DNA from: Hemileia vastatrix
Taxonomy: Eukaryota; Basidiomycota; Pucciniomycetes; Pucciniales; Zaghouaniaceae
NCBI GenBank assembly: GCA_030280995.1
Contig: JASXTE010000013.1
Span: 9,145,001-9,209,000, forward strand
Direction: 5' to 3'
DNA: 64,000 nucleotides
Of this stretch, positions 1,451 to 63,306 are shown piece by piece. A model generated the notes under the pieces. That model did no database searches, was not told the DNA's origin, and worked only from the letters and a program-made list of their open reading frames with translations. How positions within the stretch are numbered: the first letter of the stretch is position 1; each line of letters begins with the position of its first letter. Position numbers and translations under genes: made by a program.

Positions 1451-1463
1451 TGAAAAATTAGAA

Positions 1464-24137: not shown

Positions 24138-24178
24138 CTCCCTCACTCAAAAAATAAATAAATAAATAAATAAAAATG

Positions 24179-26307: not shown

Positions 26308-26347
26308 CGCCACAGAAAATTTGGGGGGGTATTGCTAGCAATACCCC
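26308..26347 (+). repeat. Left terminal inverted repeat of giant element
   Basis: It reads CGCCACAGAAAATTT, then seven G, then TATTGCTAGCAATA and CCCC. The last 22 bases (26326-26347) are a perfect palindrome. Four TTGGRA-like words follow at 26361-26400 and may be subterminal repeats. Confidence 0.9.
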
Positions 26348-27202
26348 TCATTTAAAAATGTTGGGAAGTGGTTGGAAAGCTGTTGGAAGGCTGTTGGGAG
26401 TTCATTGTGAAACCAGATTTAAATTAATTGGACAAAGATTTTGTAATCAGTTAGACCTAGGTTCAACCAAACTCAATCACAGGTTTCTTGGAGCTTGGTG
26501 ATTACTTTGATTATGAGCTGAGCACAGATTGAGCAAAGCTTGAACATATCACTTAACATATCATAATATTCACTTTCCCATCTTGTGGAAAGCAAAATTT
26601 GATATTCGTTTTAAGAATATCTACATATATTTTCTTGCCAAGTTGGTAACAGAAGGTTAAACTGTAGTATCTCAATTATTACACTAGACTGCATAGATAT
26701 TTGATAAAACATACAATTCAAATAAATTTTAATATTATTGAGATCACCATAAGTGTCTGTCCAAAGACTTATAGAAAGTATGTTAGTATCAAGACATCGT
26801 TCTAGGTAGTAGTTTCAATTTGGATTTTGAACTGACATCTAAAGCATTTTACTATAAGACAGAAACATAAATAAGTGTAATAAGAGTGAAATTATTCTAT
26901 TTTGTGACTATAATGTAACAATAAAGCACATTTTTATTGAGAAAATTTTTCTTCCTCCACAAACCAAAATTTACTCTATAGGCTCAAGATTTATTTTTAA
27001 GCCATATTATTCATTTCAGTTATCATTGATTTACTTCCAATATTTATTAAAAAGATAATAATAATACATGTGAAAGAATTATGAGCTTAGCATAGCATAT
27101 GCTAAAAAGTTATTTTGTCGTTTTATTCAAAACTGATTATTCATTTTTTGCTTCAATTCATCTTTTAACAACCACTATCTTCAGATACTATTCTTACTTA
27201 AT
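26348..27202. other. Subterminal non-coding region
   Basis: Apart from the TTGG repeats near the terminal repeat, I see no gene. The 3' part is the likely promoter region of the SNF2 gene at 27203. Confidence 0.4.
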
Positions 27203-29472
27203 ATGTCAAGTCTCAGATGTGTTGGACAGTTCTCAATAACAATCAATCAAATTTATATGAATGTAATTTCAAGATTTCAAAACTCACCGACCCCCACGAT
27301 TTTACAGCAAGGCCATTCAAATGTTCATATTTTTGGACTATTTGAAGAAAGAAAACCAACCCTTGTTGGTAATCTTTCTCAAGTGCAGAGTCAGCACATT
27401 GGACCACTATTGGGTGACATTGGCTCTGGATCTCACCATTTAAACCAAAGAAGTGCCTTGAATCCTATGAAGCCTTTCTATTTTCATGCTTACTTGGTTC
27501 CAGTTTTTGGTAATCAGTATCAACTTTGGGGATGCCTATTTTCTTCAAGTACACTAATCAGTCTTGCTAAAGAAGCATTTTCTTCTGCTCAAATCAATTT
27601 ATGTCCGATCCTGAACTACGACTCCACTATCTTTTTTAATATCCCGCATGTAATTTTTGAAGGCTCTTTCCAAATATCTCAGAGTACTCAAGATTGGAAA
27701 GCTGATCAACTTATCCGAGGAATCAAAACAGTTCTCAAAACACATCAACTTCAAGCAATAAATTTTATGATTAACAATGAACGAATGTTAAATGAAAAGT
27801 TGGATATCATGTGGAGGCACCAGGACAACCATTGGCTTAGAACTGGATTCGATGACTATAAAGATCAGTTTCCTAACAATCAATTAACCCCTGAAGGAAA
27901 AGGTCAACACTTGCTGATGATATGTGTTTGGGAAAGACGCTTTCAACTCTTTCTCTTATAAGTGCAACTCAAGGTGAAGCAAGACAATTCCAGGTATCAG
28001 AAAATCAAGAAGGTATTAATCGGAGTTCAGCCACACTGATTATATGCCCCCTGGCAACACTATCGAATTGGATCAATGAAATAAGTGTGCACTTTGAAGA
28101 TAATGCGCTTCCTTTCAAGGTTCTTTATGGGAAGGATTGTCAAAATACTAATGTCAATGAGCTACAGGACACTGCTATTGTTTTAACGACCTATGAAATA
28201 GCTAGCCCAACGATGTCAAAAAATCAAAGCCAAAAAAAGATACCGGTGACTCAAATGCTCTTTTGGTATAGAGTTGTTTTAGATGAAGCTCAGTTAGTGC
28301 CCATTTCTATATCTAAAACTTAAAACTTAATTTTTATAATCAATTTGTATAAATATTCTTTTAGTTACATTAAAAATCCTTACTCGCAGAGAGCTCAAAC
28401 AATATTTGACTTGGAATCCCAACACCGACTATGCTTGACTGGAACTCCACTTCAGAACAGGCCCACTGACCTTCAAAGTCTCATATTTTTTCTTAGAATT
28501 GAAAAGTGGCAAGAAGACTGGTTATGGAAGAATTTCCTTTTTCCAGGTTTGCAAAAAGGAAAGGCTAATTCTATTAAATAAATCAATCACTTAATGAAAG
28601 TCATAAGGCTACGTAGAACAAAGGATGCAATTTTGTCTCTTCCAAAAAAGATTCAAAGGGGGATATCGGTTCAATTAGCAGATCCATGGAGGTCTAAACT
28701 TGATGTGCTTCAAGAAGGATTCACTGAGCGATATGGGCCCTCCAGAAGCACTGACTTCCCTTGGGACTCATCTGAGTTTCTAAGAGAGCTGATGATTTTA
28801 AGAAAATTCTGCAACCATCCAATCTACGAAAATCTGGATGAAACTCCAACTTTTGATTTCACCTGGCAGCATTCCACAAAGATTTGTCATCTTATAGGCC
28901 ACTTAAAAAACTTTTTGTCTGGTGAAAGGGGTATAAATTTTCCAAAAGCTGTTATATTCTCCAACTTTGCAGACTTTTTGCAGATGTAAGTGATTCTATA
29001 ATGAATTGTTTTACAAAATTGTGTTGGCTTATTAAAAACAATTTTCTAATATTTCAAAATAGAATAAAAATGGCTTTAGATGACCACAATATTAGGTATA
29101 CCCAGATTACAGGTGAACTCAGCAGGACAAAGCGAGACAAAAATATGCATGAATTCCATTTTAATAAAAATTGCCAAGTTTTGGTTGGAACGATTCAGGC
29201 TGCAGGAGTGGGTATAGATCTCAGGTGTGCTCAAAATGTATATATAATGGTGAGCTCAATGTCTTTTATTTCATATTAAGAACAAAAATATTAAATTTTT
29301 TATATGTTCAATGTTGAAATAGGAGCCAAATTGGAATCCAGCAGTTGAGCAACAGGCTGTTGATCTGCTGTATAGAATAGGGCAGCAAAATGAAGTAAAT
29401 GTTTTGAGTTATTTTGTACAAGGAAGTATAGAATTCAGCATGTATAAGATTCAAAGGAAAAAATGGAGCTAA
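27203..29472 (+). pseudogene. SNF2-family helicase-like ATPase (Rad5/HLTF-like, no RING seen)
   Basis: From the ATG of MSSLRCVGQF an N-terminal region of about 170 aa without a recognised domain leads into LIRGIKTVLKTHQLQAINFM. A frameshift near 27900 precedes motif I, LADDMCLGKT, where Cys replaces the first Gly of GxGKT. Motif Ia is TLIICPLATLSNW. Motif II reads DEA-H only after removing an intron (28293-28364), giving LDEAHYIKNPYSQRAQ. Motif III is LTGTPLQN. One TAA at 28579 interrupts NSIK/INHLM before RLRRTKD. The helicase C lobe follows after introns 28986-29062 and 29250-29322, with GVGIDL and EQQAVDLLYRIGQQ. SNF2 enzymes move nucleosomes or DNA-bound proteins. The frameshift, stop and motif I change argue against activity here. 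Confidence 0.85.
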
Positions 29473-29612
29473 CAATGTAAGCCAAATTTCATTTCTATAA
29501 ATTTTAATGATAATAGTAATCATTAAAATTATGTTTTTGTTTTCAGGGCTAAGTGTCCCAAACAGTAGAAATGAGGAGTATGAGTGTGCAAACCTATTAT
29601 TAAGGGAGTTTG

Positions 29613-30730
29613 TCAATCACTCACATTAGAGGAAGAAAGAATTTCAAGGAGAGCAGGTAAATTTATGGGATTTTGAGGATTTAAAAGTCTGAGTTGTTGA
29701 GGATTTTGAGATGCAAGATATAAGGGAGAATAACAGTCATTTGGCAAACCCCGGGGGACATGAGAAGGATTAAGGTTAGGGGATAATGTTGAAACCAAAC
29801 TGATTCTTTTGTACAAGGCCAAGTCCTTTAGCACACTTCCAGAGTAGGTTGAATTATCTCGAATATCAAAGTGTTGTTGGTCAAGATATTGTGCAACTTT
29901 AGAAAAATCTTCAGACCTCCATTGCATTAAGATACGTCTTAACGATCCATCATTATCAATTTCGGTGTCTGAACAAAACTTGATGTTTGTGAAAAGGTTG
30001 TGATAAGTTTCACAATTTGGAAGTTGTTTAAGAAGTTTAGTTCGGTTAACTGAATTCTAAGAATCTTTGTTATTTGAAATAAAGGTCATAAATAAAAACA
30101 GTTGAAAAAAAAGGGATTTTCATACTTTTTTTTTATTCTATATTTATGCTTTCTCACTTTGATTATTTCTTGAGAGCCATGAGAATCCTTCCCAAGTCTT
30201 AATCTATCAGCATGACCTAAAAACCAACGGTGAAGAACTCCTATTTGATTTGAGAAGCTAATTTGAGTTGAGTCAATTGGATATGCAATCAAATTATTGG
30301 TTAAGGCATTGTCCCAGTGTTTAATGAGAATATTTGCCAAGACCTGGTTCCATTTGTCAAACCAATCTAGGTTCCAAGCAAAAGTTGATCCTGGGAAACC
30401 ACACATGCGAAGGTGCTCAATAAAAGATTCACGGAAAATTTGTGGAAACTTTTCCGAAACCGCTGAATTTGATTCTGGATGAGGTAGTTCAAAGGCAATG
30501 TTGCAAGAATTCATGTCAAATGATGAAAATCTGTCTAATTGCTCTTCAGTAGGGTTTTGTTTCCATCCATTTGATTCTGGTGAAATATCCAAAAGTGAAC
30601 GACAAAAATTGTGTATAGATCTACAAAAGTGAGAATTGAATGGAGGCAAAGTCTCATTAAAAATTCTATTAAGTGTTCTTGTGTTTGTGGGCAGGTTTCC
30701 ATGAGGAAAGTAAGAGCTACTAGGGTTCAT
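29613..30730 (-). CDS. Uncharacterised cargo protein 1, two exons
   Basis: The ATG at 30730 starts MNPSSSYFPHGNL. One intron (30057-30125, GTATGA...TTCTTAG on the - strand) joins RIKKK to NSVNRTKLL. The product is about 350 aa with no stop or frameshift. Recognisable pieces are CGFPGSTFAWNLDWFDKWNQ, a basic helix, LPNCETYHNLF ... KFCSDTEIDNDG, and WRSEDFSKVAQYLD near the end. The same series of motifs (GF-x-F-x-W, LF with C-x-SD-x-E) is seen weakly in the gene at 35598, so the two seem distantly related. I associate such proteins with conserved uncharacterised families in basidiomycetes but cannot name a function. It converges with the SNF2 gene, 140 bp apart. Confidence 0.7.
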
Positions 30731-31806
30731 AAATAATTAGATTAAGAAAGTGTTGAATTAAATTAAACAAAGAGGAAGGATAAATTGTTGAGCTCCAAAA
30801 CTTTATGATCAAAGTTGATTTAAGGAGAAATATCACAAAAATTAAGAATAAGAAATATTTCAACTTTATGGAATTATAATATGCATAAATTATATTTTTA
30901 TATGCAACTTGAACTCAAAAGGAATGGTATAAAATAAAGAGAATGATTATGTGATAAAAGCAGACTCATTTAAGAAACGGATTTTTTTTTCTTTTCAAAA
31001 AATTCTTCCACAAAAATAATTTGTTAAATGTGAGGCTATGTTCATTTTTTGATTACCAAAAAATTATTTTTGGTCCAATATGATAGTAATACATATTCTA
31101 TTGAGTAATTTTTTCCAACCTGAATAAATAGACTAGAGTGTCACTTCATCACATTTATGTATGAAAAGTTATACAAGGTTTCAGCTTTTATGTAATTCTT
31201 TAAGGTTTACACTTTTGTAGCATCTATTATTTGAGTATTTTTGATTTTTTTCTTTATAGAAAATTCTACCTAGTACAGACCAATTTTCAAAGTAAAAGAA
31301 ATATGTTTGTGATTGTTTTTTACAAAATATTAACCTTATTTTTGGGTTTAACTTTGATTTTTGGGGTAATTTTTTAAATAATTATGTTAAAAATATGGAT
31401 TACTTTTCTTATAGTCCATAACTAAGAATTTTTATCAAAATCAAATAATTATAGGGTAGTTAGATATAACTCAGAAGGCATTTGATAGAAAAATAATTAA
31501 GATGCTTGTGCGTACAACAGAATTTTTTCTATGATAGAAAATATTCTGATAAACATGCATGCATTGTTGTACAAATGCAGAGAGTATACAGAATACAAAT
31601 AAAGTAGACTGCATAACTTTAAATTAATATATAATTTATCTGATTAAAAATTAAACATTTAAACTTAAAAAATTTCAACACATATTCCATCATATTCTTT
31701 TGATAAAAAAATGTAGCTTATATTAGCTAGTGCCTTTCAAAAAAAGGAATACCTTCAATCGGTAACTTCGAATAGCTAACTTATTCCTACAATTATCACA
31801 ATTACA
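30731..31806. other. Divergent intergenic region
   Basis: AT-rich sequence between two genes that read away from each other. It probably holds both promoters. No further gene or repeat is supported. Confidence 0.4.
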
Positions 31807-34800
31807 ATGCCTCCATTTTTTCATGTATGACAATGTCAAGATCTTGGATGTGTCAATAGAAAGTATCAAACTTCTTCTGGGTCCTTTGAAGTTGGTATGG
31901 CTTTCAAAAGCTCTAATTCTTATGCAAAACATCAAGAGGAAAGAAATAGGAAGGCCCAGATGGTTATTTCTTCCAACAATCCACTTAACATTGGAAGCTC
32001 CCGCTCCACAGAAACAGTAAGCTTTATATCTATAGTTCAATGTGAGAATTAAAGTCTTTATGATGTTTCAATGATTTATTACATAGGGGCAGTTGCTATT
32101 GGGGGCAGAAGTATCTTCAACAGTCTCTAGAAACTCAAATCTTGGGGAACGGTATAGCCAAATAATTATGTGGCAGGCAGCAAAGCTTTCTCTGATTCAT
32201 CATTTGAGCAAAGAAGGTTGTACTCAATGTTTGGATGAAGAAATTAAGAAGCTCAAACTTCTAGGTGATAGTGGAATACTGGATTCTGATATCATTTTCC
32301 GCCTGGTCCCACGCTCGATAGATACAGTTTTTAGTCGATTAAAGCTCAATCAATCATTTTTCACTAAACCATGCTGTCCTAAATGCTTTGCTCTTTATGA
32401 GTATAACTCTGAATCTCAACCATCTATACTATGTTGCAATCAACCGTTTCTTTCATCATCAAAGCGCTATTTAAAAATGTTTGGAGCAGGACAAATTGCA
32501 GTTAAATGTGATGAAAGGCTGTTTTTGATGGAGGAACATCAAGAACATGTAAAATACTTATCTCTTAAAACATTTCATCACCATTCTTTTATTGACTGGC
32601 TTAAGGAAAAGATCAAACTGTTCAAATTTGAGCTTCTGATTGAGAAGAAAAACCCTGTGGCAGAACGTGTAGAGTGTGATTTGATGAAGGATGTTTGTGA
32701 TGGTTCAATTTGGAAAAACTTTCCCATAACCACTCCAGCTCTGGATAGCAATGATTTTGAATATACGATAACTTCAGGCAACTTAATTTTTACTTTATAT
32801 GTCGACTGGTTTAGGCCTGGTGGCAATAGGATTGGAGGTCATCAGAAGTCTGTAGGCAATATTATGATGGTGTGTATGAACCTACCTCAAGAAGATAGAT
32901 ACAAAATGGAAAATCTTTTTTTGTATACTATTATACCTGGACCAACAGAACCCACAAGTGAACAGCGTAATCACCTTCTAAAACCACTGGTTAATGATCT
33001 ACAAACTCTATGGGATGGTATATTGATTGAAAAGACACATCTTTATCCACGAGGCCGGAAATTAAGAGTTGCATTGTTCTCTTTGATAGGTGACATTCCT
33101 GCAATACAAAAATTGGCTGGCTTTTCGAGTCACTCTGCAAAAATGTTCTGCTCTTTCTGTAATATCTCTAAAGATGAAATTAGTGAAAAGAATGTGGGAA
33201 ATTTTTCATTACGGAATCATGAGGATCATATGTGCTGGGCAACAAAGTGGAAAAATTCTAAGTCACATTGGGAGCGTGTATCAATTGTTCAAAATCATGG
33301 GGTACGATGGAGTGAGCTGAATAACCTTGAATATTGGCGTCCAACTGAATATTGCTCAATTGATGTTATGCATTCACATATGCTTGGCAACCTAAAAGAT
33401 CACAGTCTAAGCTATTTTCAAATCCAAAATGCAGCAAAAGATCTAGAAAGAAAGCTGGAAAAGGATAAAAATTGGCATGTAAGAGAAGAAGATGATGATT
33501 TCTTTTCTGATACTTCACTGCACAAACATTCGAAAAAAAGTAGAAGTAGCTTAAGCACCACGAATAATGATGATGATGATACAGGACACACGAGACAGCA
33601 CAAGCGGCAAAGACGTACGAGTTCAAGACAGTCATCAAGTCATCATGGACTAGATAATGAAGGATTGGGAACAAATTGATCAAGAAGCCAGAGTAGGTCA
33701 TCCAGCTCCAAATTTATTCCTCCATATAGCGATGTGGCCTCAATACAGTCTCACAGCAGTGACAGTAGGAATTCATTGTATAACTTAAGGCAAAGAAGCA
33801 TTAGCATATCACAGAGTGAAGGATCTCACTCATCAAATGAGACAGCTAGAGATGAAGAAAATAAAAGGAAAGGTAAGGAGAAAGAAAATGAAGGTAGTAG
33901 TAATCCACGAATCACAGCAGCAGAGCTACAGGTTGTATGGAAGATGATTGATCAAGTAAGAAGACCTTCCTGGCTAACACGAGTTCCAAAATCAGTAGGA
34001 TCTAAAAAGGCAGGATCCCTCAAGGCAGCAGAATGGCACATGCTGTATACTCTCTACTTCCCTTTGTCACTTATACCCCTTTGGTTTGAAAAATTTAAAG
34101 AATCTGAGTCTTCAGCTTCCTCAGCTGATAAACCAAGAGAATATTATCTTCTCAAGTCACTTGTAACATTATGCTCGATCACCAATTTTTTGACATTAAA
34201 AAATATACAGACTAATGAGCTTAAAGATCTAGATCAATTTCTGTTAGAGTATCGTGAGTGCCTTGAAGAGGGTTGGAAGAATATTAATGCAAAGCCAAAT
34301 CTGCATATCACTCAACATTATCCTGAAATGATAAAGCGTCTTGGTCCACCATCAGGTACAGCTACTTGGTCTGGAGAGCGGGTGAATCATATATTATCTG
34401 AAATTCCAAACAATCACCATCCACGTATGTAATGTTTGTAAGCAATGATTTAAAAACTCAGCTGTGCTAATTTATTAATATTTACCACAGGAGAGATACC
34501 GCTAACAATGCTCAAACATTGGTATTGGAAGTCTAGGGTATTAGATCTTGGTGAAGCTGAAGATAATGATCAATGTGAGACTAAAAAAATCCATATTGAT
34601 CTCGATAAACAAAATAAATGGATCCATCTAAGTATGGAATTATTTACTAAATGGGTAAGGGCACGAATGGGAAAAGAAACTTCAAGACGGGCTTTGACAC
34701 CATCGGAGAAAAGTGGGGATCGGGTAGTTGAAAATGTAGCAAGCATATTGATACATGGAAAGAGGTTTACTAGTTACCATCGACACATTTCTAATTCAAC

Positions 34801-35185
34801 AATTGAATTCTACTATGGAAAAGATAGCCAGTTTGGGCAAATTGATGATCTTTTCAGATCAAAGGAAGAGATTGATCAAATATATTTAATAGTAAGTCCT
34901 TTCAAAGAGCTCCGTCCAGAAGAAACATCAAAGGATCCCTATGAGCTTTTCCCACAAGTGCATTGTCGGTTAGTAAGAGTAGCCAAAGCAACTCAAATTG
35001 TGATTAAAAAAGATGAAATAATTGGACATGCAGCTACTGTCGAGCAAAAAAAAGGAATGTTTGTAATCAAAGACAAGGTTGTCACTGCCATTGGACTGCA
35101 GACAGTAGTGAGTGAAAAAATTAATCAAATTTATTTTCTGTTGACTAACATCTTTGTGTTAATTTGGGATTGGGAAAATTTGTAG
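31807..35185 (+). pseudogene. Tnp2-type (Transposase_21) CACTA transposase
   Basis: Exon 1 starts MPPFFHV at 31807, has an in-frame TGA as codon 8, then QCQDLGCVNRKYQTSSGSF, a Cys-containing N-terminus like other basidiomycete Tnp2 proteins. Introns are 32017-32086 and 34425-34490, both in phase. The catalytic domain shows LYVDWFRPGGNRIGGHQKSV (about residue 310), IIPGPTEPTSEQRNH, LLKPLVNDLQTLWDGI, FCSFCNIS, and GVRWSELNNLEYWRP with CSIDVMHSHMLGNLKDH (about residue 490). A second TGA (33677-33679) falls in a low-complexity acidic/serine linker, after which the frame continues with ITAAELQVVWKMIDQV and a C-terminal region. The length, about 1,080 codons, is normal for the family. It should cut at the terminal repeats, but two stops make this copy doubtful. 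Confidence 0.88.
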
Positions 35186-35597: not shown

Positions 35598-37275
35598 ATG
35601 GATGATAATTTTGAAGGGATGTCTGTTGACCCAACCGATTCTGATTGTTTTCCACCTCAACATACTAATACTGGAAATACTCCTTCACCACCCTCTGCTG
35701 ATCCACCTCCAGATGCATCTCAATCTGTACCACATAATCCTAACCCACCACCTAATCCCAATCCAGGCCAAGAGTCTCATTCAGAACTGAGAAATTTTAA
35801 TCCCAATCATCCTTCTGCTTCTGAAAGTGCTGATCAGCAAGCTGATCAGCTAGGAAGAGATTGGGCTAGTGAAGTATTGAGGGAATTTTTCGGAGACCAA
35901 TCATCATCTTCTCAGCCTAACCAAGGAGCAAGCACAAGTGGAGCAGGTAAGTCAAATTTGTAGTGTATTCTTTTATTGAAAAATAACCAATTTAATTAAC
36001 TTATTTGAATTGTTAGTGAATCCCTCAATCATTATGGGTATCAGTGATTACCACAGACTCAATTCAGCAGAGTCTCATGAGCAAGAACAGGGGTTAAGGG
36101 CTGTAAGAGGCTTAGTTAGAAGGAATGATGTTCCCAGGAGCTCGGACAGTCTAAATAGAAATATTTACCACTTTCTGAAGTATTGTCTTGGGGGAACAAC
36201 ACAAATATCAAAATATCCTGCGATCCCAACACCTTTGGAGATTGAAAATTGGAAAGATTGGAGCCAATTCAAACTAAAAACCATTCAAACTGTCCTAACC
36301 CAAGTCCAATCTTCTAACCATGCCAATTCTGCAGCTGATTGACAATTTCTGATAACCAATTCTATAGCCTTCTTGCGATCCAAAATTCGACTACCCGAAT
36401 TTTTTCCAGCACCTGAGCCTCGAGGACTAAAAGGAGGAGCACCAATCCCACTTTCTGTCAAAAGAAACTTAGAGCGTGAATTGCAAGAAAAAGGTTTTCG
36501 GAAATTTGCGTTTGATTGGACTTGCCGTGATTTTTCATAATCAACTTGGAATCAAGTCATGGGAAGCATAGTATGCGACCATTGTACCAGATGGCTCACC
36601 ACCTTGAATACAATCGATCAGTCAAAGCTTCAGTTCACTCAATGTGTTATTGAGAAATGGGTAGTTAATAAGGGGGAGGAGATGATAAGGTTGTTTGGGC
36701 AAGAAGAGGAAAGGGTAGCAAGAGAAAAGATTGAAAAGAGGGCAAGGGCACAAGTAAAACGTTATCGGACCAAGGTAAGTTTTTTATTTTACTTTGCTTT
36801 TTGTTATTATGAAGCTGATTTAGTTGGAATTCAGATTGCTAGTGCACGCTACAAGTTAGCAAGAGATCTCTGCAGTGATGTGCCAGGTTTTGTTGTGCTT
36901 TTTCATGATACTATGTGCATCTCTGATATTGAGGAAGGCCCAGCACCAGCCCCAACTGCACCTATCCAAGCTATTCCTGGATGGCAAAATCCTGAACTCA
37001 ATGATTTGTTTAAAAAAATGGATAAGATGACAAAGGACTTAGCCCATACACCAGCTCAAAGAAAATCAGCATTAAAAACATATTCACGGTCATCAGAAAG
37101 GACAGTTGCACAAAATGGTATATTCAATGTTCCCAAATACCTCCCCAAGAATTGCTATTCAGCAACATTTTGGCAAGGATTATCTGTGAATGAACATGAG
37201 TCACTTGGGGTTGGAGCTGATATTGATCTGGTAAGGATTCGGGAATCAATTAATAGAGCATCAACATCATCATAA
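35598..37275 (+). pseudogene. Uncharacterised cargo protein 2, three exons with two stops
   Basis: The ATG at 35598 gives MDDNFEGMSVDPTDSDCF and a Pro/Ser-rich N-terminus. Introns are 35947-36016 (GTAAGT...TTGTTAG) and 36775-36834 (GTAAGT...ATTCAG, divisible by three). The middle exon carries DYHRLNSAESHEQEQGLRAV, then in-frame TGA near 36340 and TAA near 36538, with coding similarity continuing across both (LPEFFPAPEPRGLKGGAP; EKGFRKFAFDWTCRDFS; WNQVMGSIVCDHCTRW). A charged helix EEERVAREKIEKRARAQVK and DVPGFVVLFHDTMCISDIEE follow. The layout GF-x-F-x-W, W, then LF-x-C-x-SD-x-E resembles the gene at 29613-30730. I do not know its function. Confidence 0.65.
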
Positions 37276-37489
37276 CTTTGGTATAACGGTGATCTTCTGT
37301 GTAATATAGCTATCTTATATTGAATTTTATGTATTCTGTTTTTTTTCAAAGCAGCTTGGTAAATGTTATAAAGTGATATTGAGAGAGAGTAACATTTTAT
37401 TTAAGAAAAACAAATAATGTATGAGATATAAAAATGTATTTTAAACAAATTGATGGTCCATACCTCTTTATGTCACATTTATGTATCCA
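37276..37489. other. Spacer before palindrome array
   Basis: Non-coding AT-rich sequence, presumably the 3' region of cargo gene 2. Confidence 0.4.
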
Positions 37490-50167: not shown

Positions 50168-50299
50168 ATTGGGATCCTTTCCGAAATATCGACGGCGCAA
50201 CGTTACTTGAGGCGTAATTGAGGGGACCATCGGCGTACAAGCACCTGTAAAGGACGAGTAGAGGCGAGAAAAACAACGAACGTCATATGTCACGTGATA

Positions 50300-50325
50300 A
50301 AAGTTTTTGCTGCAAACGGGAATCG
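50300..50325 (-). promoter_or_regulatory. B-box-like word in retrotransposon leader
   Basis: On the - strand the leader reads GGTTCGATTCCCG, matching the Pol III internal B-box consensus. It is conserved in copy B (near 19758) and, with one change, in copy A (near 797). The surrounding sequence does not fold into a full tRNA, because the T-stem does not pair beyond two bases, so this is either a decayed tRNA-derived segment or a short coincidence. Confidence 0.35.
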
Positions 50326-50455
50326 AACCGCGCTCCAAAACTTAAGTTCATATACTGACTAAAGATCGTATATATCGTGGTAATTATTGTGATTACTATT
50401 TGTGGGTTACTCTTCACTCTTCATTTCCTACGTATTTCCTTTTACTCAGCACTCT

Positions 50456-52477: not shown

Positions 52478-52489
52478 TAGAATCTTAAG

Positions 52490-55400
52490 ATGACTGATCA
52501 AAGTGGCTTTGCTTCACGTGAAGAAGAATAGACTTAATTGATTATGATGAGCCTACTTCTGTAAGTTCTCCTTTAACAAGAAGAATTTCTCAAACTAATA
52601 AATCCTTGCCCCAAACAGGATGTGGAAATGGAAGAAGTAGAAATCCTAGTGGACAATACTCAGGATCAGAAACCCAGGACAAACCCACCAGAAGAGCTTC
52701 CAAGAGGCTTCAAGATAAAAAAGATGCCGTTGTCCCAGCAGATAAAGAATCTGTCAACCCACATAAAGGAGTTAAAGACAGACAGCTTAAAACTAAAGGT
52801 AAGGGTAGATGCCTTGGAAGAATGGGAGAAAAGAAAAAATACTTCTCTCCAAGAGAAAAGGAAACCTCTTCCTCCCAGGGATCAACAACAATTGGCTCCC
52901 CAATCCCAAGAGATGGTAGAAGTGTCCAAGTGGCAGTGGGACTGGCTCAACACACAGTGGGACTACTTAGCTCAAAATCATCATCAATTACCTCAGGTAG
53001 GTCCATCAAGGCCCACCCAGGCCAACCCCACTCCTCCCCACCCTTATCAAGAAGGCAAAAGAAGAAGGAAACCCAATATGGTGATACCCAGAAAACCCTG
53101 GTACGTCCCTCTATTGATTCTCAAGTGCCTTTTCTTGTGGCTGACTCTGTTCCTTCAGGTAAATCTGGGAGGCAGGATGAAACCTTGAGACCTATAGAGG
53201 CTGGGAATAGTAGACAGTTATCTCATGTATCCAATCCATTACTTTTAATTGCTACCTAAATGATTAATCCTGATATGGCTGTGATTGATGAAACTCTTGA
53301 CCCTGAGTTCTATGAGAGCCTGGAAAGTTACTCAGTTTCCTTATTGAGAAACACTCCAGATGTAGCAAGAATTAATGATGAGCACTTGAGAGATATTATT
53401 GCCAAGCAAAATCATATAATGAACAATATGCAATTGACTCAGAGATATAATAGTTTGTTAACTGATCAGGGTTATCAAGCATTAAAAAGTGAAGCACAGA
53501 GAGTCTCTGATGAATTGTCTTATTACAAAGCAACCCATGAAAAGAAAATTGCTTTATGGCAAAATATAAAAAATGATTTATCTAAACTAAAAGATACTGT
53601 ATCTACCTGTTGCCAGGAGGTAGAGATAGATAAGATAAATCTGAAAAGATTGAGTGACCATTTGTCATCTTTTCAACATAAAAATCAATTATCTTTTGCA
53701 ACTATCAATGAAAGTTTATCTAGTCTTCCAAGAATGAAAACAAGACTAACAACCATTGAAGAAAAATTGAACTCATTGTTAAATGACCAAAAATATTCTG
53801 ACAATTCTGTGAAGGAACATATAGTGCAGGATGCTCAACCAGTACCTGTGGCTAGTTCATCTAAAATAAAAATTGATCCAGAAATACCTGTTGATAACAC
53901 TGAGTTTCCATCAAAAACTGATGATGCACCAGGATCAGCAACAGAAGGATTAAAAAATGAGATTTCAGCACAATTAGAGAAATTACAGCTGCTTCTTACT
54001 CAGAAACAAGCTAGTACTAAGGAGACTCCTTCAAATCAAAAGAATTGGCCAAAACTTGACCAGTACCCAACATTTGATGGTTATTCTTCCTCTGATTGGC
54101 AACAATTTATTTGCAGAGTTGATAATTTAAAAAATTCTTACAAACTCCCAGATGAGGAAATTGTGTCCAAACTAATTTCTTTCTTCACTAATGTTGCTCT
54201 GATGTGGTATGAATCTGTTCTCCTGGATGCGAATGACTACTCATGGGAGTATTGGAAGAAATTAATTAAAGCACAATTTGGTGGCTCCAACTTCAGAATG
54301 GCTCAACAAAGGCAGTATGAGGAAACTAGATATAGCTCTTCTACTGATAAACCTATTGAGTTTTTAATGAAACTTGTAAAAATCTTAAGGGCAATGGACC
54401 CAAATATGGAGTTTGATTTATGGAAGGACAGGATCCTCTATAAATTACCAATGTCTCTGAGAGACTTGATTGTGGCTAGGACTGAGTTCTCCAAAGAGCC
54501 CTCTTCTTTCATTAATACTTGCAATGAGATACTTCTAAACAATAAGTATGATGCAAGAAGATTCATTCCTAGGACCCCTTTGGAGAAACCCTCCACTTAC
54601 CAACAAAAACCTCTGGAAAAGGTTGGTAAACCTTCTGCCCCTGTTGCACCAAAGAAGTATGCAAAAAACACTTGCTTCAAGTGCAACAAGCCTTGGCAGA
54701 AAGGCCATGTTTGTGACAGGAAGATAAATCTTGTAGAACAAACAGAGGAGCATGCTGATGACACAGTGGCACTGGATGATACATCAAGTGATTGTGCCAG
54801 CAATATTTCATATGAATCTCAACAAGAAATCTTGATTCTGGAAGAAGATATTCATTATTTAAATACTATTGACATTGATAATAATGATTTATCTACAGTT
54901 GAGGATGCTGAGATCATAAAGAACATTGACGATAACTCAATTGTTATTGCCCCTCTTAAGGCACCAGTCTTGATCAATGGAACCAGCATTGAAGTTGTTC
55001 TGGATTCTGGAGCTGGAGGAAGTGTAGTATCTGAAAGAGCACTTGCCTCAGGTGATCAAGACTATAAATCTAAACTGTTGCCTATCATTTCTGAAAATTG
55101 GAGAGGGTATGGCTCTGTTTTGTCCCCCATTGGTAAATACAAAGCCACAGTGTTTTTTAAATATAACCATGGTTTTGTAAGAGCTATTTGTGATTTTGTT
55201 GTCATGAAAAATGATAACTTGAGCAATTGGTTTATTTTAGGGAATGATATTTTAACCAAGTATGGCATAAAATTGGATCCTTCAAACCAATGTTTTACAA
55301 TGGGGTTGAATGGGAAGAGAAAATTTAAAATTTCCTCCCCTAAAAAATTATTAAAACCAGAATTGAACACATGTAATTCTGTGGTTCAATATAAAGGAAG

Positions 55401-58400
55401 ATCTACAAAGGAAATGCATGCCCTTATGTCTGAAATTGACAATGCCTCTTTTGGAGAACAACTTTCGGGTGAGGATAAAGATTCCATCATTAACTTGATA
55501 AAATCTTTTCCTATGGCCTTTGCTCATGGGTCACATGAACTGGGATTAGTTAAAGAGGAAATGAAACTTTCATTGTCTTGCCCATTAACTGATATACCAC
55601 CTAGTTTAAAGAAGAAGCCTTATCATGCTTCTCCCACAAAGAGAAAAGATATTGAAGATAATATCTGTACCCTTTTAAAAATGAATATTATTGAAAAGGT
55701 AGTTGAAACGATTAAATATTGTGTTTATCTCACCTGTCCTAATTTCTTATGAGAAAGATAAAGCCAGGTTATGTGGTGATTATAGAGCACTAAATAATTA
55801 TACTGTTGATGATATCTATCCTTTACCTAGAATCAGCTCTATACATGCTACTTTACAGGGTGCTAAATATATCAGCTGTTTGGATGGTAATAAGGGATAT
55901 CACCAGGTACCTGTTGAGAAAAATTCTCAGAACTTTCTGATGATTGCCACTCATATGGGTATTTATAAGTATATTAGGATGCCATTTGGCCCTAAAAATG
56001 CCCCTTCTGTTTTCCAAAAAGTAATGGATAACACATTCCATCAAGAGATAATTGAAGGTTGGCTGATAGTCTATATTGATGATATCATTATATTCTCAAA
56101 AACATTTGAGGACCATCTTAAACACCTGTGTAAAGTATTCCAGAAAATGGATGAAATAAATATGACACTTGCTTTGAAGAAATGTAAATTTGGTTTCCAT
56201 TCTTTAAAAGTTCTTGGTCATGTTGTTTCAGGCTTACAGATATGTGTTGACCAGAACAAAGTGGCAGCCATACAACAGGTGAAAGCTCCTACAACATTGA
56301 GAGAGCTCCAAAGTTTTTTGGGAATGTGTGGATACTATAGACAGTATATTAAAAATTATCAAGTCATAGCTTTACCCCTTACCCAATTAACTAGAAAGGA
56401 TGTTGCTTTTGTCTGGAATAGTGAAAGACAAAGAGCCTTTGACACTATGAAACACTGTTTGATGTCAGCTCCAATTCTTGCTTTACCTGACTTTGATCAA
56501 CCATTTTTTTTGTACACTGATGCCAGTTTTATTGGTCTTGGTGCTGCCCTCCATCAAAAACAAGTGATAAATGATAAAGTTTCAGAGGTAGTTATTTGTT
56601 ATATTTCAAGAACATTGAGAAATAGTGAATTGAAATATGGTGCTACTCAATTAGAGTGTTTAGCTGTAGTATGGGCTCTGGAAAAGCTTCATTATTACCT
56701 AGATGACCAGAAATTTGAACTTGTCACTGACTGCAGTGCAGTTAAATCCCTATTAAACTTGAAAACACCTAATAGACATATGTTTAGATGGCAACTGGCT
56801 GTTCAAGAATACAGAGGGAGAATGACAATTATTCACAGAGCTGGCATTGGTCACTCAAATGTGGATATGTTATGAAGGTTACTCTTACCAAATGATGACT
56901 CAAATCCTGCTTATGATCCTGAGGATGAAATTATCCATATCCATGGGATATATGTGGTTGATATGGAGGAAGAGCTATTACAGCTTTTTCTGGAATCATA
57001 TGATAAGGACACTGACTTGAAAAAGTTATGCACCATATTAAATGATCCAAAGAATGCTTCAATACAAGCATTAATTAAAACCCTTCCACCAAAGTACCAA
57101 AAAGGTTTGGAAAAAGGAAAATTTTCAATTTATGAAGGATATCTATATTATAGAAGAAAGTTGAGTAATGTTATTGTTATTCCTCCTTCTATGAATGAAA
57201 TCATCTTGAAAATTTGTCATGATGACATATTAGCTGGACATTTTGATCTTGAAAAAACAATGATCAGAATTAAGAACACTGCTTGGTGGGCTAATATGTC
57301 TGAGGACACAAAATTATATGTTGAATCCTGTGATTCATGCCAAAAATCAAAAAGATTAACTGGTAAAAGAGCAGGATTAATGCAACATATTGAACCTCCT
57401 GATGCTCCATGGCAAAAAATAAACATGGACTTTGTAACAGGATTACCTATTGCTGGTAAAGACAGTTATAACTCTTGTTGGGTTATTGTGGACAGATTCA
57501 CAAAATTGTGTAAATTTATCCCTACCCACAAAGATGTTTCCACTAAAGAATTAGCTTTCTTATGGTGGTCTCATATGTTTAATACTGCTGGTTTTCCTAA
57601 AGCCATAATCTCTGACAGAGACCCTAAATTTACTTCTGAATTTTGGATGTCTCTGATGGATGTTTGTGGTTGTGATCTGAAACTTTCTACTGCCCATCAC
57701 CCTCAGACTGATGGTTTAGCTGAAAGAATGATTCAGACTTTAGAGGACATGATAAGAAGATATTGTGCCTTTGGCCTTGAGTATAAAGATAATGACAGAT
57801 TCACTCATGATTGGGTTACCTTACTTCCTGGGTTAGAATTTGCTTATAATAGCACCGTTCATTCTGTTACTCAAAGAAAACCTTTTGAGCTCTGGCTTGG
57901 ATATGTTCCTAATACTCCTCCCCAAATTCTCAATAACAAAATACCTAAATTGGATATACATCCTGGTGTAAAATCTTTTCTTCAAATGCAACAACTATGC
58001 AGAAATCATGCTCAAAAATGTATTGAAAAATCATTTGAATATGAGAAGAAAAGATGGGACAAATCCCATAAAGAATACACTTTTAAAAAGGGTGATGAAG
58101 TGTTGATTTCTACAGTCCACTTCAACTTACAAGGTAATAACAAATTAAAAGATCCATTTGTTGGTCCATTTGTCGTCAGAAGAATGATTGGAGATAATGC
58201 AGTTGAAGTTATTCTGTATTCCCCATATGACAGAAAACATCCTGTTTTTCCAATATCTCTTTTGAAACCTTACACATCCAATAGTGATTTATTTCCAAGA
58301 AGGAGGGGTAGACCAAAGAAAACCCCGAATGAAATCACTGAGACAGCAGAAATTGAAAAAATATTAAATGACAGAATAGTCACTGCTGAGAAAGGTACAG

Positions 58401-58513
58401 AATACTTAATGAGATTCAAGAATAAATCATCTGAATATGATTCTTGGATACCTGGGAAGGAGATATCTAATCTTCCTACTCTACTAAAAAAGTATAAGAA
58501 GAGAAAATCATAG
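52490..58513 (+). pseudogene. gag-pol of copy D, nearly complete chromoviral polyprotein
   Basis: The ATG at 52490 starts MTDQSGFASREE. A one-base deletion gives an early TAG. A 58-bp intron (GTAAGT...AACAG, about 52561-52618) leads to the coiled-coil frame (DVEMEEVEILV ... LKVRVDALEE); a further frame change near 53000-53100 returns to the gag frame. After the TAA at 53258 come INPDMAVIDETLDPEFYESL, the gag core (WPKLDQYPTFDG), a C-x2-C-x7-H-x-C knuckle (CFKCNKPWQKGHVC, about 54674), protease (VLDSGAGGS), RT (YIDDIIIFS, about 56070), RNase H (LYTDASFIGLG; CLAVVWALEKLH; ELVTDCSA), integrase HHCC (HDDILAGHF; ESCDSCQK) with DDE (MDFVTGLP; ISDRDPKF; TDGLAERM), and a chromodomain (EIEKILNDR; YDSWIPGKEIS). 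The chromodomain would direct integration to marked chromatin. Confidence 0.95.
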
Positions 58514-58536
58514 CATTTTTTTTTATTATTTTTTTT

Positions 58537-58549
58537 TAGAGTAAGGGAG
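58537..58549 (+). other. Polypurine tract of copy D
   Basis: AGAGTAAGGGAG lies directly before the 3' LTR and matches the tract in copy A with one change. Confidence 0.75.
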
Positions 58550-59377
58550 TGTCAGCCAGGCTACTGGACTTACCCAGTGAAATAAGGAATTATTTACTGG
58601 ATGAAGCCGCACCTTATCATCTTTTTTTAATTATTATTTAATTATCATTTAGTTAAATTAACATTAGTTATAAATTAACTAGTTACAGAATGTTAAAATT
58701 AAATTAATTAATTAAATAAATAAGTAAAATTATAATTATAATTTTGTCCCTTATATTTTCTCTAACACCGTGCTCAATTGACAGGTTGGGAAAAATAAAA
58801 ACTTTATATTTAAAAAAAATAAAATACAAAGATAAAATAAGATTTAAAATATTCAAATAATATTAAATATATACAAATAAATCAAATTTCTTATTTGGAA
58901 TTGACATTTACAGTAAATATTAAAAATATTGATGTATTTCTGACATACTCTGTAAATACATCTTTTTGACGCCTTCTTTTTGGAATAACTTTATTATTTG
59001 AAATACTCTTTCTGGAATGTTCTTTTTCTCTCTTTTTCCCTACTGTTTTTAGAATTTGATTTCCGTGCTTTGTCTCTCCTTTGCCTATAAAAGGCCTCTC
59101 TTTTTGTTGTCTTTTAATAATTCTATCTTACCAAACCATTTTATTACAACAATAACCAATAAAAACTTATTCTTATACTCTATATCATTAGTATTTACAA
59201 TAGTGTAATTCTAATTTATAAATTATATTAATATTTTAATCCTACCTCTTTTTATTGAGTAAAACAATCATCTTTGAATTGAGAAATACGTACAAACTTG
59301 TTGAGAATCCATTTAAACCTTATAAATCCTCGTAGAACTTCGTACCAAAACTTCTAGACTAAAAGCGTACCTTGACA
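58550..59377 (+). repeat. 3' LTR of copy D (828 bp)
   Basis: About six substitutions separate it from the 5' LTR, for example near 58655 and 58746, which marks a recent insertion. It ends CCTTGACA, followed by the duplicated ATTTT. Confidence 0.97.
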
Positions 59378-59576
59378 ATTTTTATCTAGAAATTCTTGTA
59401 CTCTAAAACCAAATAATTTTCTCCCTTAAGTAAGCCATTTCAAAAATATGAGAATATAAACAAGAATATTAACTTATCTTATTTTTATTTTCTTTACTGA
59501 AAGTTTTAGTTCAATCCCTTTTTTTATATGACATTATTATAAAAACATGGTTAAATGCTACTATATAATTAATTTT

Positions 59577-59621
<45 letters not shown>

Positions 59622-61330
59622 TTAGAAGGTCATCCTTTTTTATTTACTTTAATAAATGGCTCAATTATAATACCCAACACTTATTAATGTTTCCCAAACT
59701 CAATAACAAATTTCTCATATGAAATATTAGCTTCTAATATAAGAAGTTTATCTATAGATGATATTCAACATGTGATTTTACTTTTTAGATTCAGCTAAAA
59801 TTAAACAAAAGGAGAAATCATGAATATGTGTATAAATGGTAACCATATGTTACTTAGAGGATTGTGAAATTCACTCATCAGAATGGTTTAAGTATTAAAA
59901 AAAATTGAGGTCATTATTTTCTAGTATTTGAAACTAATTAGGAAATTATTCTAAAAATATATTGTAATGTGTATCATGTTTAAAAAGTTGGAAATATGAT
60001 TTTTGAAAATTGTGAGTTTCTTATGAGATACCAAGCTTTAGTTTTCATTGTTTCAAGTAGAATAGAATTTTAGTATTAGAAATTGAAAGCAATGTACCAT
60101 TATCAGATTTTAACTGTGTTCTACTTATAGAATGATTACATAACATTAAACATTATTTAAATCAAAAAGGTTTAAAAGATATTTAGAATTTTGCCAAATT
60201 TCACCATTTATTAATCTTTGATTTGAAAACAAACTATGATGTTCACTCACTAGAAATAAGCAATCCCAATTTTAACATAATTTATCAATCCAAAAATAAT
60301 GAGTCAATTAACATGAAAATATATATTATTTCAAAAGCAAATCTCTAGATTTAAAATATGATGCTTTAATGAAAAATTATTACAAAACTTTAATGCAATG
60401 AAGTCTCTTAAAAAATTCAAAAATAGAATATCAAAACAAGTAATTTCTGCAAAAAAAACTACTAACTATTGTAGATAAAGCATAAAAATAAGTCATATTT
60501 TTAAAAAAAATGATCTAACAATATTTATTTTTGTTAAAAAAATCAAAACATTGTTAAGTTTGCTTGTTATAATAATGTTAAAATCCACTAAACATTATCT
60601 AAAGGTGGTAAAATATGTTAAAAATATGTTGAATTTTGTGAGATAAAAATCAACAATTTTGTATCATTTCCTGTTGTGCTATGACTTTATTCCACCCTTT
60701 TTATCTGATTCTTTCAGTATTACTTTGCTATGATCACTAGTTTTCAAGTTAAAATTTACAAATGTTCATTATACTTGATAATATGAAAAATAACTCAAAC
60801 TTTTATAACTAAAAAATAAGATTTTGTAACTCCTTCTTTCAATCAATATTTGAAGAAATTTTTAGTTTATTTGAGTAATGATTTTAAGAATAACAAAAAA
60901 TTTGAAATTCACAAGGAATTATTTCCAGAGACTATAATTATTTACTTGTGTAATGCATGAGCTACTTATCAATGATGTAAAACATCAGAAAAGTAAGTTA
61001 TAGTTATAAATCTACATATTATACTGTTTCTGGTATATATATCTTCAATAAATCTTTTAAACTTATCTTAGCCTACATACCACACAATAGAAAATCATTA
61101 TATTAAAAAAGGAAAAAATTCTATGATAATATCATAAAGAAGGGTAACCATGGATTAATATTCCATAAAAATGGTTAATAAAATTTTAAGAGAACCTAAA
61201 TCAGTATTCTTTCATCAAAATATATCCTTTTTGTCTTTGTAATTTATTCCAAACAAATTTTTTGAAAGTTGAATCTATATATCTAATGCCAAAACCACTA
61301 TTAAGTTCCCTCTTAGACTTTTTAAGAAAT

Positions 61331-61361
<31 letters not shown>

Positions 61362-63266
61362 TATTTATCAAAAATTGAAATAAAGAATAAAAACATAATT
61401 TTATTTACCTTTAATTATTTAAATATAGAGTATTTTCAGAATGCATTGTGGTTACTTGTGAAGGTTAGAAGATTTGAAGTTGGATTTATGAGTTTTTAGA
61501 AGGGCAAATATTGTAAAATTCTTTCATAAATATTTATTTCATAGTTTCAAATGTTGAAATCTACAAACTAATGGGATTTAAAATTATATTGAGATTTAAA
61601 ATCTGTTTTCCACTCAAGTAAAATAAAATAAAATGATGATATCAAAATTGAAATTAAGTTTAAACTTTTGATATGCTCTATCTTCAATTTTATTGATAGT
61701 GCATCAAAAATTTAATAATATTTTTTTCCTTCATCACTTTTTACATAAAATATAGTTTTATCATTTTATGAATTAAAGATTGCTTATATAAATTTAACAT
61801 TTATGTCAACTGTTTATGACTATTAATCTATATAATAAATTTTTTAGAAGAAAAAATAACATCAGTATATACTGACTTTGAAATTATTAAATTTAAAATA
61901 GTTTACAGGTAGATAATGAAGGGTGATTTCATTTTTGAATATGAATGATAGAAGTCTTCTTTTGTCAATTTTAATTTTTTTTGAGCTCAAATGTATCCAC
62001 CTCAACTTATGTAAGAATAAAAATTATTTTTATTGAAATTTACATGAGAAAGTATGCCTATTATTCAAAATCAAACTTGCTCTAATGGTGTTTTTCAATC
62101 ATTATTTCCATTCATAACAATAAAAAACATTTCAATTTGCTGATGTTTTAGTTTTTGATATCCCCAAGTTTATATCTCAGGTGTACTATTCACAAAATTA
62201 TTAAAAATATAATTTTCAAAATACATGATAAACTTGAAAGTGAGGGGGCATTAAATTTTAAAAAATGAATTCTAAATTCAGGATGGATAGTATTTTTTCT
62301 ATTTTCACAAATGAACAATTTTTTGTTTCAATTAATCCAGAAAGAAAATTTTGTTGTAAGCATATTATATTATATTTATTATGATTTTAAATACTATATT
62401 TTCAAGATTTGTGTTTAATATTTCCTGTGAAAGTTAATGATAATGTGAGTTTTAAGTAAGCTTGAAGAAATTTAATCAATAGGCATATTGGATATTTAAA
62501 ATAATATTTTGCTCCAATCTTGAATCATCCTGAGCTAAAAAATATCCCAAATAAGGTTTTTGTGGGTCAATTTGGATTTAAGTAGGATTAAGTGAGGTTT
62601 AATAAAGAACAGATAAAAGGCTAAATTCATTACTAGTGACTTTTTTCTCAAAATAGTTATAAAATATGTATCATTCTGGAATCAAGCTTCAATAAAGTTG
62701 AATTGAAACAGAGATAATTTCTAGCAGCACAACACCATATTTACAAAGGTGTAAAATACCTCAAATATTACTCATAATATAGGAAGGCAAGGAATCTACA
62801 AAATTCACATTTCAAACGAGGATTTATATTTTGAATTTGAAATTGAAAAATGGAATATTATTTTCCAATTTAAATATCTATTAGTCATTTTACCAAAATT
62901 TTTCAGTAATCAGATTGAATTTTGATGGTATTTTGTTGTAGATTAATCATTTTGATGAGCCATTTACTCAAAATTACTGGTTTCGTTTCTAATATTCCAT
63001 GTGAAATTCATTACAAATCTTTTTGAAAGTGAATAGTTGACATATTGGATATGGAAAAGCTTATGTTAGATCAAAGTGAGATCAAAGGGAGTTCAACTGA
63101 TGATCAAATTAGGATTTTACAAGATCAAATGGTGATCAATGTAGGTTCATCTTGAGCTCAATTTGTGACAAATCTCTTACTAAATGTAAGGCCAAACAAT
63201 TTCCTACATGGTGATGATGTGTGCATAATTCAAGCATAGATTTGTGGCTCAACGGAGTTCAAGCAA
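59378..63266. other. Right part of giant element, no gene seen
   Basis: About 3.9 kb of AT-rich sequence without a supported frame. An alternating TA run covers about 59579-59613 and a shorter one about 61331-61361. Close to the right terminal repeat, five GATCAA words occur in 75 bp (63067-63141), possible subterminal repeats. Confidence 0.5.
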
Positions 63267-63306
63267 GGGGTATTGCTAGCAATACCCCCCCAGTTTTTCT
63301 GTGGTG
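63267..63306 (-). repeat. Right terminal inverted repeat of giant element
   Basis: The reverse complement reads CACCACAGAAAAACT, seven G, TATTGCTAGCAATA and CCCC, matching the left repeat at 37 of 40 positions. The inner 22 bases (63267-63288) are the same perfect palindrome. Confidence 0.9.

What the first reader, a model, noticed from the sequence alone, without database searches (positions are those of the whole stretch)
26308..63306. A 37-kb CACTA-like transposon with multi-gene cargo splits a Ty3 copy
Seen directly: 40-bp terminal inverted repeats (37/40), flanking ATT on both sides, and a retrotransposon frame that resumes at the exact next codon across the gap. A Tnp2 transposase and at least five other genes lie inside. 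Known CACTA elements have 3-bp duplications and CAC-type termini, but this size and cargo (SNF2, Tet-like oxygenase, palindrome array, hairpin run) are far beyond a usual CACTA element. It resembles in concept the giant cargo transposons of ascomycetes, with a different transposase. I am not aware of a description of it.
Basis: partly seen in the sequence, partly recalled or inferred. Interest (0 to 1): 0.95.

Follow-up and report, generated by a model that had tools for sequence, protein, structure and literature searches.

The report
27-kb gene-carrying fungal CACTA-type transposon
A very large cut-and-paste transposon, probably from a rust-like fungus, has jumped into an older retrotransposon; it carries genes that may help it resist DNA-methylation silencing, and is a large, unusually loaded relative of elements already known from rust fungi.

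Summary
26308-63306 has 40-bp inverted termini (37/40) flanked by ATT inside one Ty3 copy. Two uninterrupted Ty3 copies in the window supply the empty site: rejoined flanks match at 114/120 and 111/120, frame open, with a 3-bp overlap.

Corrections. The 37 kb includes a later Ty3 (49340-59377, own ATTTT duplication), so the transposon proper is about 27.0 kb. It holds six predicted genes: Tnp2 (CACTA/EnSpm) transposase with its catalytic motifs, Rad5-like SNF2 helicase, TET-like oxygenase, an orphan, and two diverged copies of one unknown family. In-frame stops suggest that this copy has decayed.

It is not Starship-like. TET-carrying EnSpm elements with 3-bp duplications and CAC..GTG ends are published from rust fungi (PMC12730594); its length table and figures were not visible to me. 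Not seen in the text I read: SNF2 cargo, the duplicated accessory gene, the 19-palindrome array. Element gene spans keep about nine times more CpG (relative to GpC) than Ty3 bodies: consistent with TET protection, not proof. Second genomic copies could not be sought; the genome search did not complete.

The parts
26305..26307 (.). target-site duplication, left (ATT)
   Evidence: 3-bp overlap with two intact Ty3 copies
26308..26347 (+). left terminal inverted repeat (CGCCACAG...), ending in the 22-bp perfect palindrome GGGGTATTGCTAGCAATACCCC at 26326-26347
   Evidence: hairpin z -3.1
27137..29480 (+). SNF2-family helicase gene, several exons (3' end approximate); one in-frame stop and one frameshift in this copy
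   Evidence: PF00176 and PF00271 on stop-free pieces; 2.5e-51 and 1.9e-13 on the pieces joined with X; best solved match RAD5 1.6e-41; motif VI exon near 29323
29613..30736 (-). accessory gene, copy 1 (no Pfam family at its cut-off); two stop-free pieces, but the one donor and two acceptors tried did not join them in frame
   Evidence: homologous to copy 2 (local score 99 against shuffled 37.5, s.d. 5.2); 98%-identical relative P0010 over 55% of the query; splice attempt
32087..35185 (+). Tnp2 (Transposase_21) CACTA/EnSpm transposase; one in-frame stop at 33677-33679 in a low-complexity linker (an intron there is not excluded); a likely intron after about 34425
   Evidence: PF02992 3e-15; D/D/CxxC in the first piece, HxxxH and E in the second; for the splice-like sequence
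35598..37275 (+). accessory gene, copy 2; two in-frame stops in this copy
37491..39428 (.). array of 19 near-perfect 22-bp palindromes (type ATTAATTTCGATCGAAATTAAT) with about 63-, 81- and 110-bp spacers, some of them in both orientations
   Evidence: 19 matches, 0.13 expected, all 19 in this stretch; spacers between 20 positions, the union
40524..42679 (+). orphan predicted gene of several exons, no Pfam family at its cut-off
   Evidence: open frames; Pfam scans of four pieces
43687..44951 (-). TET-like 2OG-Fe(II) oxygenase gene with HxD (HLD) and a downstream H; pieces stop-free, exon borders not settled
   Evidence: PF20515 4.2e-21 on the last piece, 1.6e-21 with upstream pieces joined by X
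46866..47067 (.). GC-rich hairpins
   Evidence: I25; fold z -6.3 for 46866-46912
49340..59377 (+). nested, younger Ty3 retrotransposon (not part of the transposon proper), TSD ATTTT at 49335-49339 and 59378-59382
   Evidence: LTRs 99.3% identical over 831 bp; flanks; RT, RNase H, integrase and chromo domains
59383..63266 (.). AT-rich (23% GC), CpG-poor tail of the transposon without an ORF of 150 aa or more
63267..63306 (-). right terminal inverted repeat (CACCACAG... read inward), with the same palindrome at 63267-63288
   Evidence: hairpin z -3.4
63307..63309 (.). target-site duplication, right (ATT)
23417..26307 (-). left (3') part of the interrupted Ty3 copy
   Evidence: RNase H and integrase domains
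63307..63442 (-). right (5') part of the interrupted Ty3 copy, collinear for 136 bp only

Best explanation
A CACTA/EnSpm-type cut-and-paste transposon of about 27 kb, belonging to or near the TET-carrying EnSpm elements of rust fungi, inserted into the pol gene of a Ty3 copy and made a 3-bp ATT duplication. Another Ty3 element inserted into it later. Shown: inverted termini, duplication, empty site, the Tnp2 transposase with its catalytic motifs, TET-like and SNF2 genes, the paralogous gene pair, the palindrome array. Inferred: the RAG-like DDE transposase recognised the terminal repeats (perhaps through the 22-bp palindrome) and moved the whole unit. Also inferred: the TET-like enzyme, perhaps helped by the SNF2 remodeller, keeps the element's genes from being silenced and mutated through 5-methylcytosine. 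The paired accessory genes and the palindromes would then be the element's own DNA-binding protein and its sites (weakest step). The confidence below is for the identity and structure; I put the TET-protection step at about 0.35.
For: Termini and duplication. Empty site in two intact Ty3 copies with the same 3-bp overlap, rejoined flanks 114/120 and 111/120. Tnp2 PF02992 3e-15, conserved D, D, CxxC, HxxxH and E. TET PF20515 4.2e-21. SNF2 PF00176 2.5e-51. A scan for exact inverted arms of 12 bp or more, 800 bp or more apart, with a 3-10-bp duplication gave 25 pairs, none longer than 14 bp, so no sign that genes came in on a second nested DNA transposon. CpG:GpC 133:376 in element gene spans against 15:389 in Ty3 bodies of the same window (odds ratio 9.2). 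Published rust TET+ EnSpm elements have 3-bp duplications and CAC..GTG ends (PMC12730594).
Against: The left end is CGC rather than CAC. Subterminal 8-mers are not enriched. The tail at 59383-63266 is as CpG-poor as Ty3 (3 CpG: 49 GpC), which element-wide protection would not predict. The contrast is weaker when whole Ty3 copies with their LTRs are taken (CpG observed/expected 0.07-0.21 against 0.33-0.45 for the element without its tail). CpG retention could reflect recent arrival or different selection rather than TET, and the four Ty3 copies are related, so sites are not independent. In-frame stops in Tnp2, SNF2 and accessory copy 2, plus a frameshift in SNF2, argue that this copy is inactive. 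A single array unit does not fold better than shuffles (z -1.3). No second genomic copy was seen because the genome search did not complete.
Confidence: 0.82

Rival explanations
1. A composite: an ordinary-sized CACTA element that became large by passive accumulation of other elements and gene fragments, with SNF2, the accessory pair and TET not serving the transposon.
For: A Ty3 has inserted. About 8 kb of the rest (45.0-49.3 and 59.4-63.3 kb) is AT-rich with no ORF of 150 aa or more. Three genes are broken in this copy.
Against: No second terminal-repeat pair with a duplication around any gene block (exact arms only; diverged arms would be missed). TET in EnSpm elements recurs in several rust families (PMC12730594). 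The accessory family is present twice, on both sides of the transposase, and a 98% relative exists in other public data, which may be the same species.
Confidence: 0.25
2. Misassembly: two unrelated element ends joined through Ty3 repeats.
For: Four Ty3 copies in 64 kb and a real Ty3 discontinuity at 63442/63443.
Against: A misjoin in repeats would not be expected to place both breakpoints on one 3-bp Ty3 site with matching inverted termini and an ATT duplication. The Ty3 jump is outside the element and between non-homologous Ty3 positions.
Confidence: 0.04
3. A Starship-like giant cargo element.
For: Size above 25 kb, several genes, a defined insertion site.
Against: DDE Tnp2 transposase; no tyrosine recombinase among the protein pieces scanned (20 of the 76 ORFs of 55 aa or more listed).
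Confidence: 0.01

Closest known systems
TET+ EnSpm (CACTA) families of Puccinia striiformis and related EnSpm families of other rusts including Austropuccinia psidii (Kojima 2025, PMC12730594)
   Same: EnSpm-type transposase of the CMCT clade with CxxC and HxxxH, 3-bp duplication, CAC..GTG end (right end here), TET/JBP-like gene with HxD
   Different: SNF2 has 0 occurrences in that paper's text. Lengths, accessory genes and the drawn termini are in a table and figures that I could not see, so they may overlap with this element. The left end here is CGC; I saw no palindrome array in parts 1-5 of the text.
PlavakaB elements of Agaricomycetes (same paper)
   Same: Related transposase group, 2- or 3-bp duplications, some carry TET
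   Different: Termini CATCA..TGATG there, CRCCA here; the TET of Plavaka is listed as PE type (HxE), here HxD
Kyakuja-Dileera-Zisupton TET+ transposons (same paper)
   Same: Fungal DNA transposons carrying TET/JBP genes
   Different: Other transposase, 7- or 8-bp duplications
Starship elements
   Same: Large fungal element with several genes
   Different: Tyrosine-recombinase captain there (PMC13066641 passages), DDE transposase with terminal inverted repeats here

Membership tests
[quoted passage not shown]
   PF02992 3e-15; D336 and C355/C358 invariant among 9 sequences, the earlier D (LYVDWF) shared by the 8 sequences that reach it; H209, H213 and E233 invariant among 4. Calling these the catalytic residues follows the motif description in PMC12730594; the paper's alignment figure was not visible.
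CACTA/EnSpm (CMC/CMCT) | 3-bp target-site duplication (2-5 bp in the wider clade, PMC12730594) | tested here: met
   ATT on both sides and 3-bp overlap with two empty sites
CACTA/EnSpm (CMC/CMCT) | 5'-CAC..GTG-3' termini | tested here: inconclusive
   Right end CAC, left end CGC
CACTA/EnSpm (CMC/CMCT) | subterminal repeats (recalled from plant CACTA elements) | tested here: not met
   Top 8-mer counts 3, 3 and 4 in 300, 600 and 1000 bp against random internal pairs averaging 3.5, 4.8 and 6.2; not given as a defining feature of the fungal families in the parts of PMC12730594 read
TET+ rust EnSpm (Kojima 2025) | TET/JBP-like 2OG-Fe(II) oxygenase inside the terminal repeats, HxD type | tested here: met
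   PF20515 4.2e-21; HLD motif and downstream H in the translation
TET+ rust EnSpm (Kojima 2025) | transposase groups with those families in a tree | not testable with these tools
   Their sequences are in supplements that could not be opened
PlavakaB | termini 5'-CATCA..TGATG-3' | tested here: not met
   Ends are CGCCA and CACCA
Starship | tyrosine recombinase captain | tested here: not met
   No such Pfam hit among the pieces scanned, which cover 20 of the 76 ORFs of 55 aa or more in 26308-49340
KDZ transposons | KDZ-type transposase and 7-8-bp duplication | tested here: not met
   Tnp2 transposase and 3-bp duplication; no KDZ Pfam hit among the pieces scanned

The most novel reading that the evidence does not exclude
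A CACTA lineage that grew to about 27 kb by assembling its own anti-silencing kit. TET oxygenase, SNF2 remodeller and a duplicated element-specific protein with palindromic sites would act together, and the element's genes would therefore keep CpG where the TET-less Ty3 elements beside it have lost nearly all of theirs. That would be a natural, testable footprint of transposon-encoded TET activity.
Probability: 0.22. Interest if true: 0.75.

Novelty: new variant of a known kind. Interest (0 to 1): 0.5.

Why it matters
Why fungal transposons carry TET genes is not experimentally validated; the published proposal is escape from methylation-based silencing and mutation (PMC12730594). One window here holds a TET-bearing transposon nested in, and interrupted by, Ty3 elements in which no TET was found. 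Its gene spans have CpG:GpC of 0.35 against 0.04 in Ty3 bodies. Repeated across a genome with methylation data, this comparison would test the escape idea directly. The element also shows an insertion of this class with a unit of about 27 kb.

Tried and rejected
Four scans of viral contigs gave no relative: the transposase (no pattern match), its alignment (20 pattern matches, none confirmed), the terminal repeat (none), the accessory protein (2 pattern matches, none confirmed). One scan of genome contigs (bacteria and archaea) for the 22-bp palindrome gave none. The protein database search with the TET piece gave none of 123 candidates; the one with the accessory pair scored only the 7994 candidates sharing most words and gave one hit.

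Structure models of the transposase piece (mean pLDDT 50.6) and of accessory copy 1 (47.8) were too poor to use; no fold search was made. Rfam: no family at gathering score in the window. Weak Pfam hits below the curated cut-off were set aside: Tim54 on the orphan gene (0.0049), DUF6241 and KELK on the accessory pair (0.12 and 0.031), Dsl1_N on an SNF2 piece (0.0057). The solved-structure search with TET gave two chance-level hits with the last piece (0.38 and 0.98) and none up to E = 1 with the longer form. LTR-pair differences do not show CpG-specific decay (transitions with CpG in one copy: 1 of 14, 0 of 11, 0 of 1). Between Ty3 copies, CpG sites of D read TG, CA or TA at 4 of 8, 4 of 7 and 8 of 17 in C, B and A, the reverse at 1 of 5, 3 of 5 and 3 of 10: few sites, so not leaned on. 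The host was not identified: 2-kb GC from 0.21 to 0.40 and dense Ty3 resemble Austropuccinia psidii (33.8% GC, PMC8063080 passages), an inference only.
Full report
OBSERVATION. The two ends at 26308 and 63306 match as inverted repeats at 37 of 40 positions, and both are bordered by ATT. Both ends contain the same perfect 22-bp palindrome, GGGGTATTGCTAGCAATACCCC (26326-26347 and 63267-63288), with no other exact copy in the window. Because a palindrome matches itself in inverted orientation, the outer 18 bases carry the independent evidence; 15 of those 18 match.

EMPTY SITE. The window holds four related Ty3 copies: A (before 1 to 8317), B (11980-20739), C (23417-26307 plus 63307 onward, interrupted) and D (49340-59377). 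The left flank of the element aligns to D 56385-56492 and the right flank to D 56252-56387, sharing three bases. Copy A gives 5359 onward and 5226-5361, again three bases. Joining 60 bp from each flank and dropping one ATT copy gives a sequence matching D at 114 of 120 and A at 111 of 120 positions, with the pol frame open. This is an insertion with a 3-bp duplication, judged against two uninterrupted copies. One blemish: 136 bp to the right of the element, Ty3 homology jumps from D 56252 to D 57664 (57107-57664, 99.3% identical). The jump is outside the element and joins non-homologous positions, so by inference it is more likely a rearrangement between Ty3 copies than a copy switch by the assembler.

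SIZE. D lies inside the element, has LTRs 99.3% identical over 831 bp, carries reverse transcriptase, RNase H, integrase and chromo domains and is bordered by ATTTT on both sides. It is a separate, later insertion. Removing it and one 5-bp duplication leaves about 26.96 kb. A scan for exact inverted arms of 12 bp or more, at least 800 bp apart, with flanking duplications of 3-10 bp gave 25 pairs, none longer than 14 bp and all at 25% GC or less, so no further nested DNA transposon is evident; diverged arms would be missed.

GENES. Exon borders below are my reading of open frames. (i) SNF2 helicase, about 27137-29480, plus strand. Pieces hit PF00176 and PF00271. Joined with X they give 2.5e-51 and 1.9e-13, and the best solved relative is yeast RAD5 (1.6e-41; 75 distinct sequences at 1e-10 or better). 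(ii) Accessory copy 1, 29613-30736, minus strand. (iii) Tnp2 transposase, 32087-35185: PF02992 3e-15. The first piece aligns with eight relatives of unnamed organism and keeps the D-containing blocks and FCSFC; the second keeps HITQH and GERVN. The relative with the highest identity, P0002, is 48% identical over 38% of the first piece and 41% identical to the second. (iv) Accessory copy 2, 35598-37275. Copies 1 and 2 are homologous: local score 99 against a mean of 37.5, s.d. 5.2, maximum 64 in 1000 shuffles; BLASTP of their pieces gives 3e-5 and 0.001. No Pfam family passes its cut-off. The one database relative, P0010, is 98% identical over 55% of the query, from a 1098-bp contig, and differs at several residues, so it is another copy or allele, perhaps of the same species. 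(v) An orphan predicted gene, pieces between 40524 and 42679. (vi) TET-like oxygenase, 43687-44951, minus strand: PF20515 4.2e-21, with the HxD form of the iron-binding motif. Pfam scans covered 20 of the 76 ORFs of 55 aa or more that overlap 26308-49340.

STATE OF THIS COPY. In-frame stops interrupt collinear frames once in Tnp2 (an intron there is not excluded), once in SNF2 and twice in accessory copy 2; SNF2 also has a frameshift near its first helicase motif. The pieces of TET and accessory copy 1 are stop-free, but the splice tried for copy 1 (one donor, two acceptors) did not join its pieces in frame. This copy is probably not autonomous now.

REPEATS. Nineteen near-perfect 22-bp palindromes fill 37491-39428 (19 found, 0.13 expected). 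Taking the 20 positions found together, spacers are about 63, 81 or 110 bp, and the 81- and 63-bp kinds occur in both orientations. A single array unit folds no better than shuffles (z -1.3), whereas the termini (z -3.1, -3.4) and the GC-rich hairpin at 46866-46912 (z -6.3) do. Subterminal 8-mer repeats are not enriched.

CpG. Element gene spans (introns included) have 133 CpG to 376 GpC; the four Ty3 bodies have 15 to 389 (odds ratio 9.2, Fisher p 2.7e-22; other DNA left of D, without array and hairpins, 31 to 154). Each of the six genes has more CpG per GpC (0.29 to 0.50) than the Ty3 bodies together (0.04). Against a simple protection model: the AT-rich tail has 3 to 49; D's LTRs keep CpG (observed/expected 0.70), so whole Ty3 copies contrast less (0.07-0.21 against 0.33-0.45 for the element without its tail); neighbouring non-Ty3 DNA lies between (0.21 and 0.115); and the Ty3 copies are related and so not independent.

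MECHANISM. Shown: insertion with inverted termini and a 3-bp duplication, and a transposase of the right class. Inferred: cut-and-paste movement of the whole unit by that transposase. Inferred with less support: TET oxidises 5-methylcytosine on the element, the SNF2 protein opens chromatin, and the accessory proteins bind palindromic sites.

LITERATURE. Kojima 2025 (PMC12730594; I read parts 1-5 of 7 and searched passages) describes TET+ EnSpm families of Puccinia striiformis with 3-bp duplications and CAC..GTG ends, and related EnSpm in other rusts including Austropuccinia psidii. It proposes escape from silencing. The full-text count for SNF2 in it is 0. Its table of lengths and its figures were not visible, so whether this exact family is listed there is unknown. 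Searches for a fungal CACTA with SNF2 cargo, or a giant basidiomycete element of this kind, were 10 of 10 papers listed; 12 of 12; 5 of 5; 15 of 73; 10 of 15. None of the titles and abstract openings listed describes one; the Kojima paper is the nearest. Iyer et al. 2014, which linked fungal TET genes to transposons (recalled, and cited in PMC12730594), is not held. Starships reported from the basidiomycete Tremella (PMC13066641, passages) are found by their tyrosine recombinase and are a different kind.

VERDICT. A real, very large, gene-rich CACTA/EnSpm insertion; a new variant of a known kind rather than a new class of giant transposon.

Noticed in passing
window 63442/63443: Ty3 homology jumps backward by 1.4 kb and from about 90% to 99.3% identity with the inner Ty3, a rearrangement junction 136 bp outside the transposon.
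   Followed up: partly
window 12837-18545, 4869-7305, 53260-58513, 24179-26307: Ty3 bodies of four copies are almost free of CpG (15 in 15.5 kb) although D still has long open frames, while the D LTRs keep CpG (observed/expected 0.70): either CpG avoidance or very rapid loss.
   Followed up: partly
window 21171-21622: A tandem repeat outside the element shares the 13-mer GGGGGGGTATTGC with the terminal repeats (5 matches at up to 1 mismatch in the window, 3 of them here, 0.03 expected); possibly a related small element.
   Followed up: partly
window 37491-39428: Palindromes separate modular spacers, two kinds of which occur in both orientations, as if segments between palindromes had been inverted.
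   Followed up: partly
window 11361-11634: C- and T-rich tandem repeat of 32-66-bp units between two Ty3 copies.
   Followed up: no
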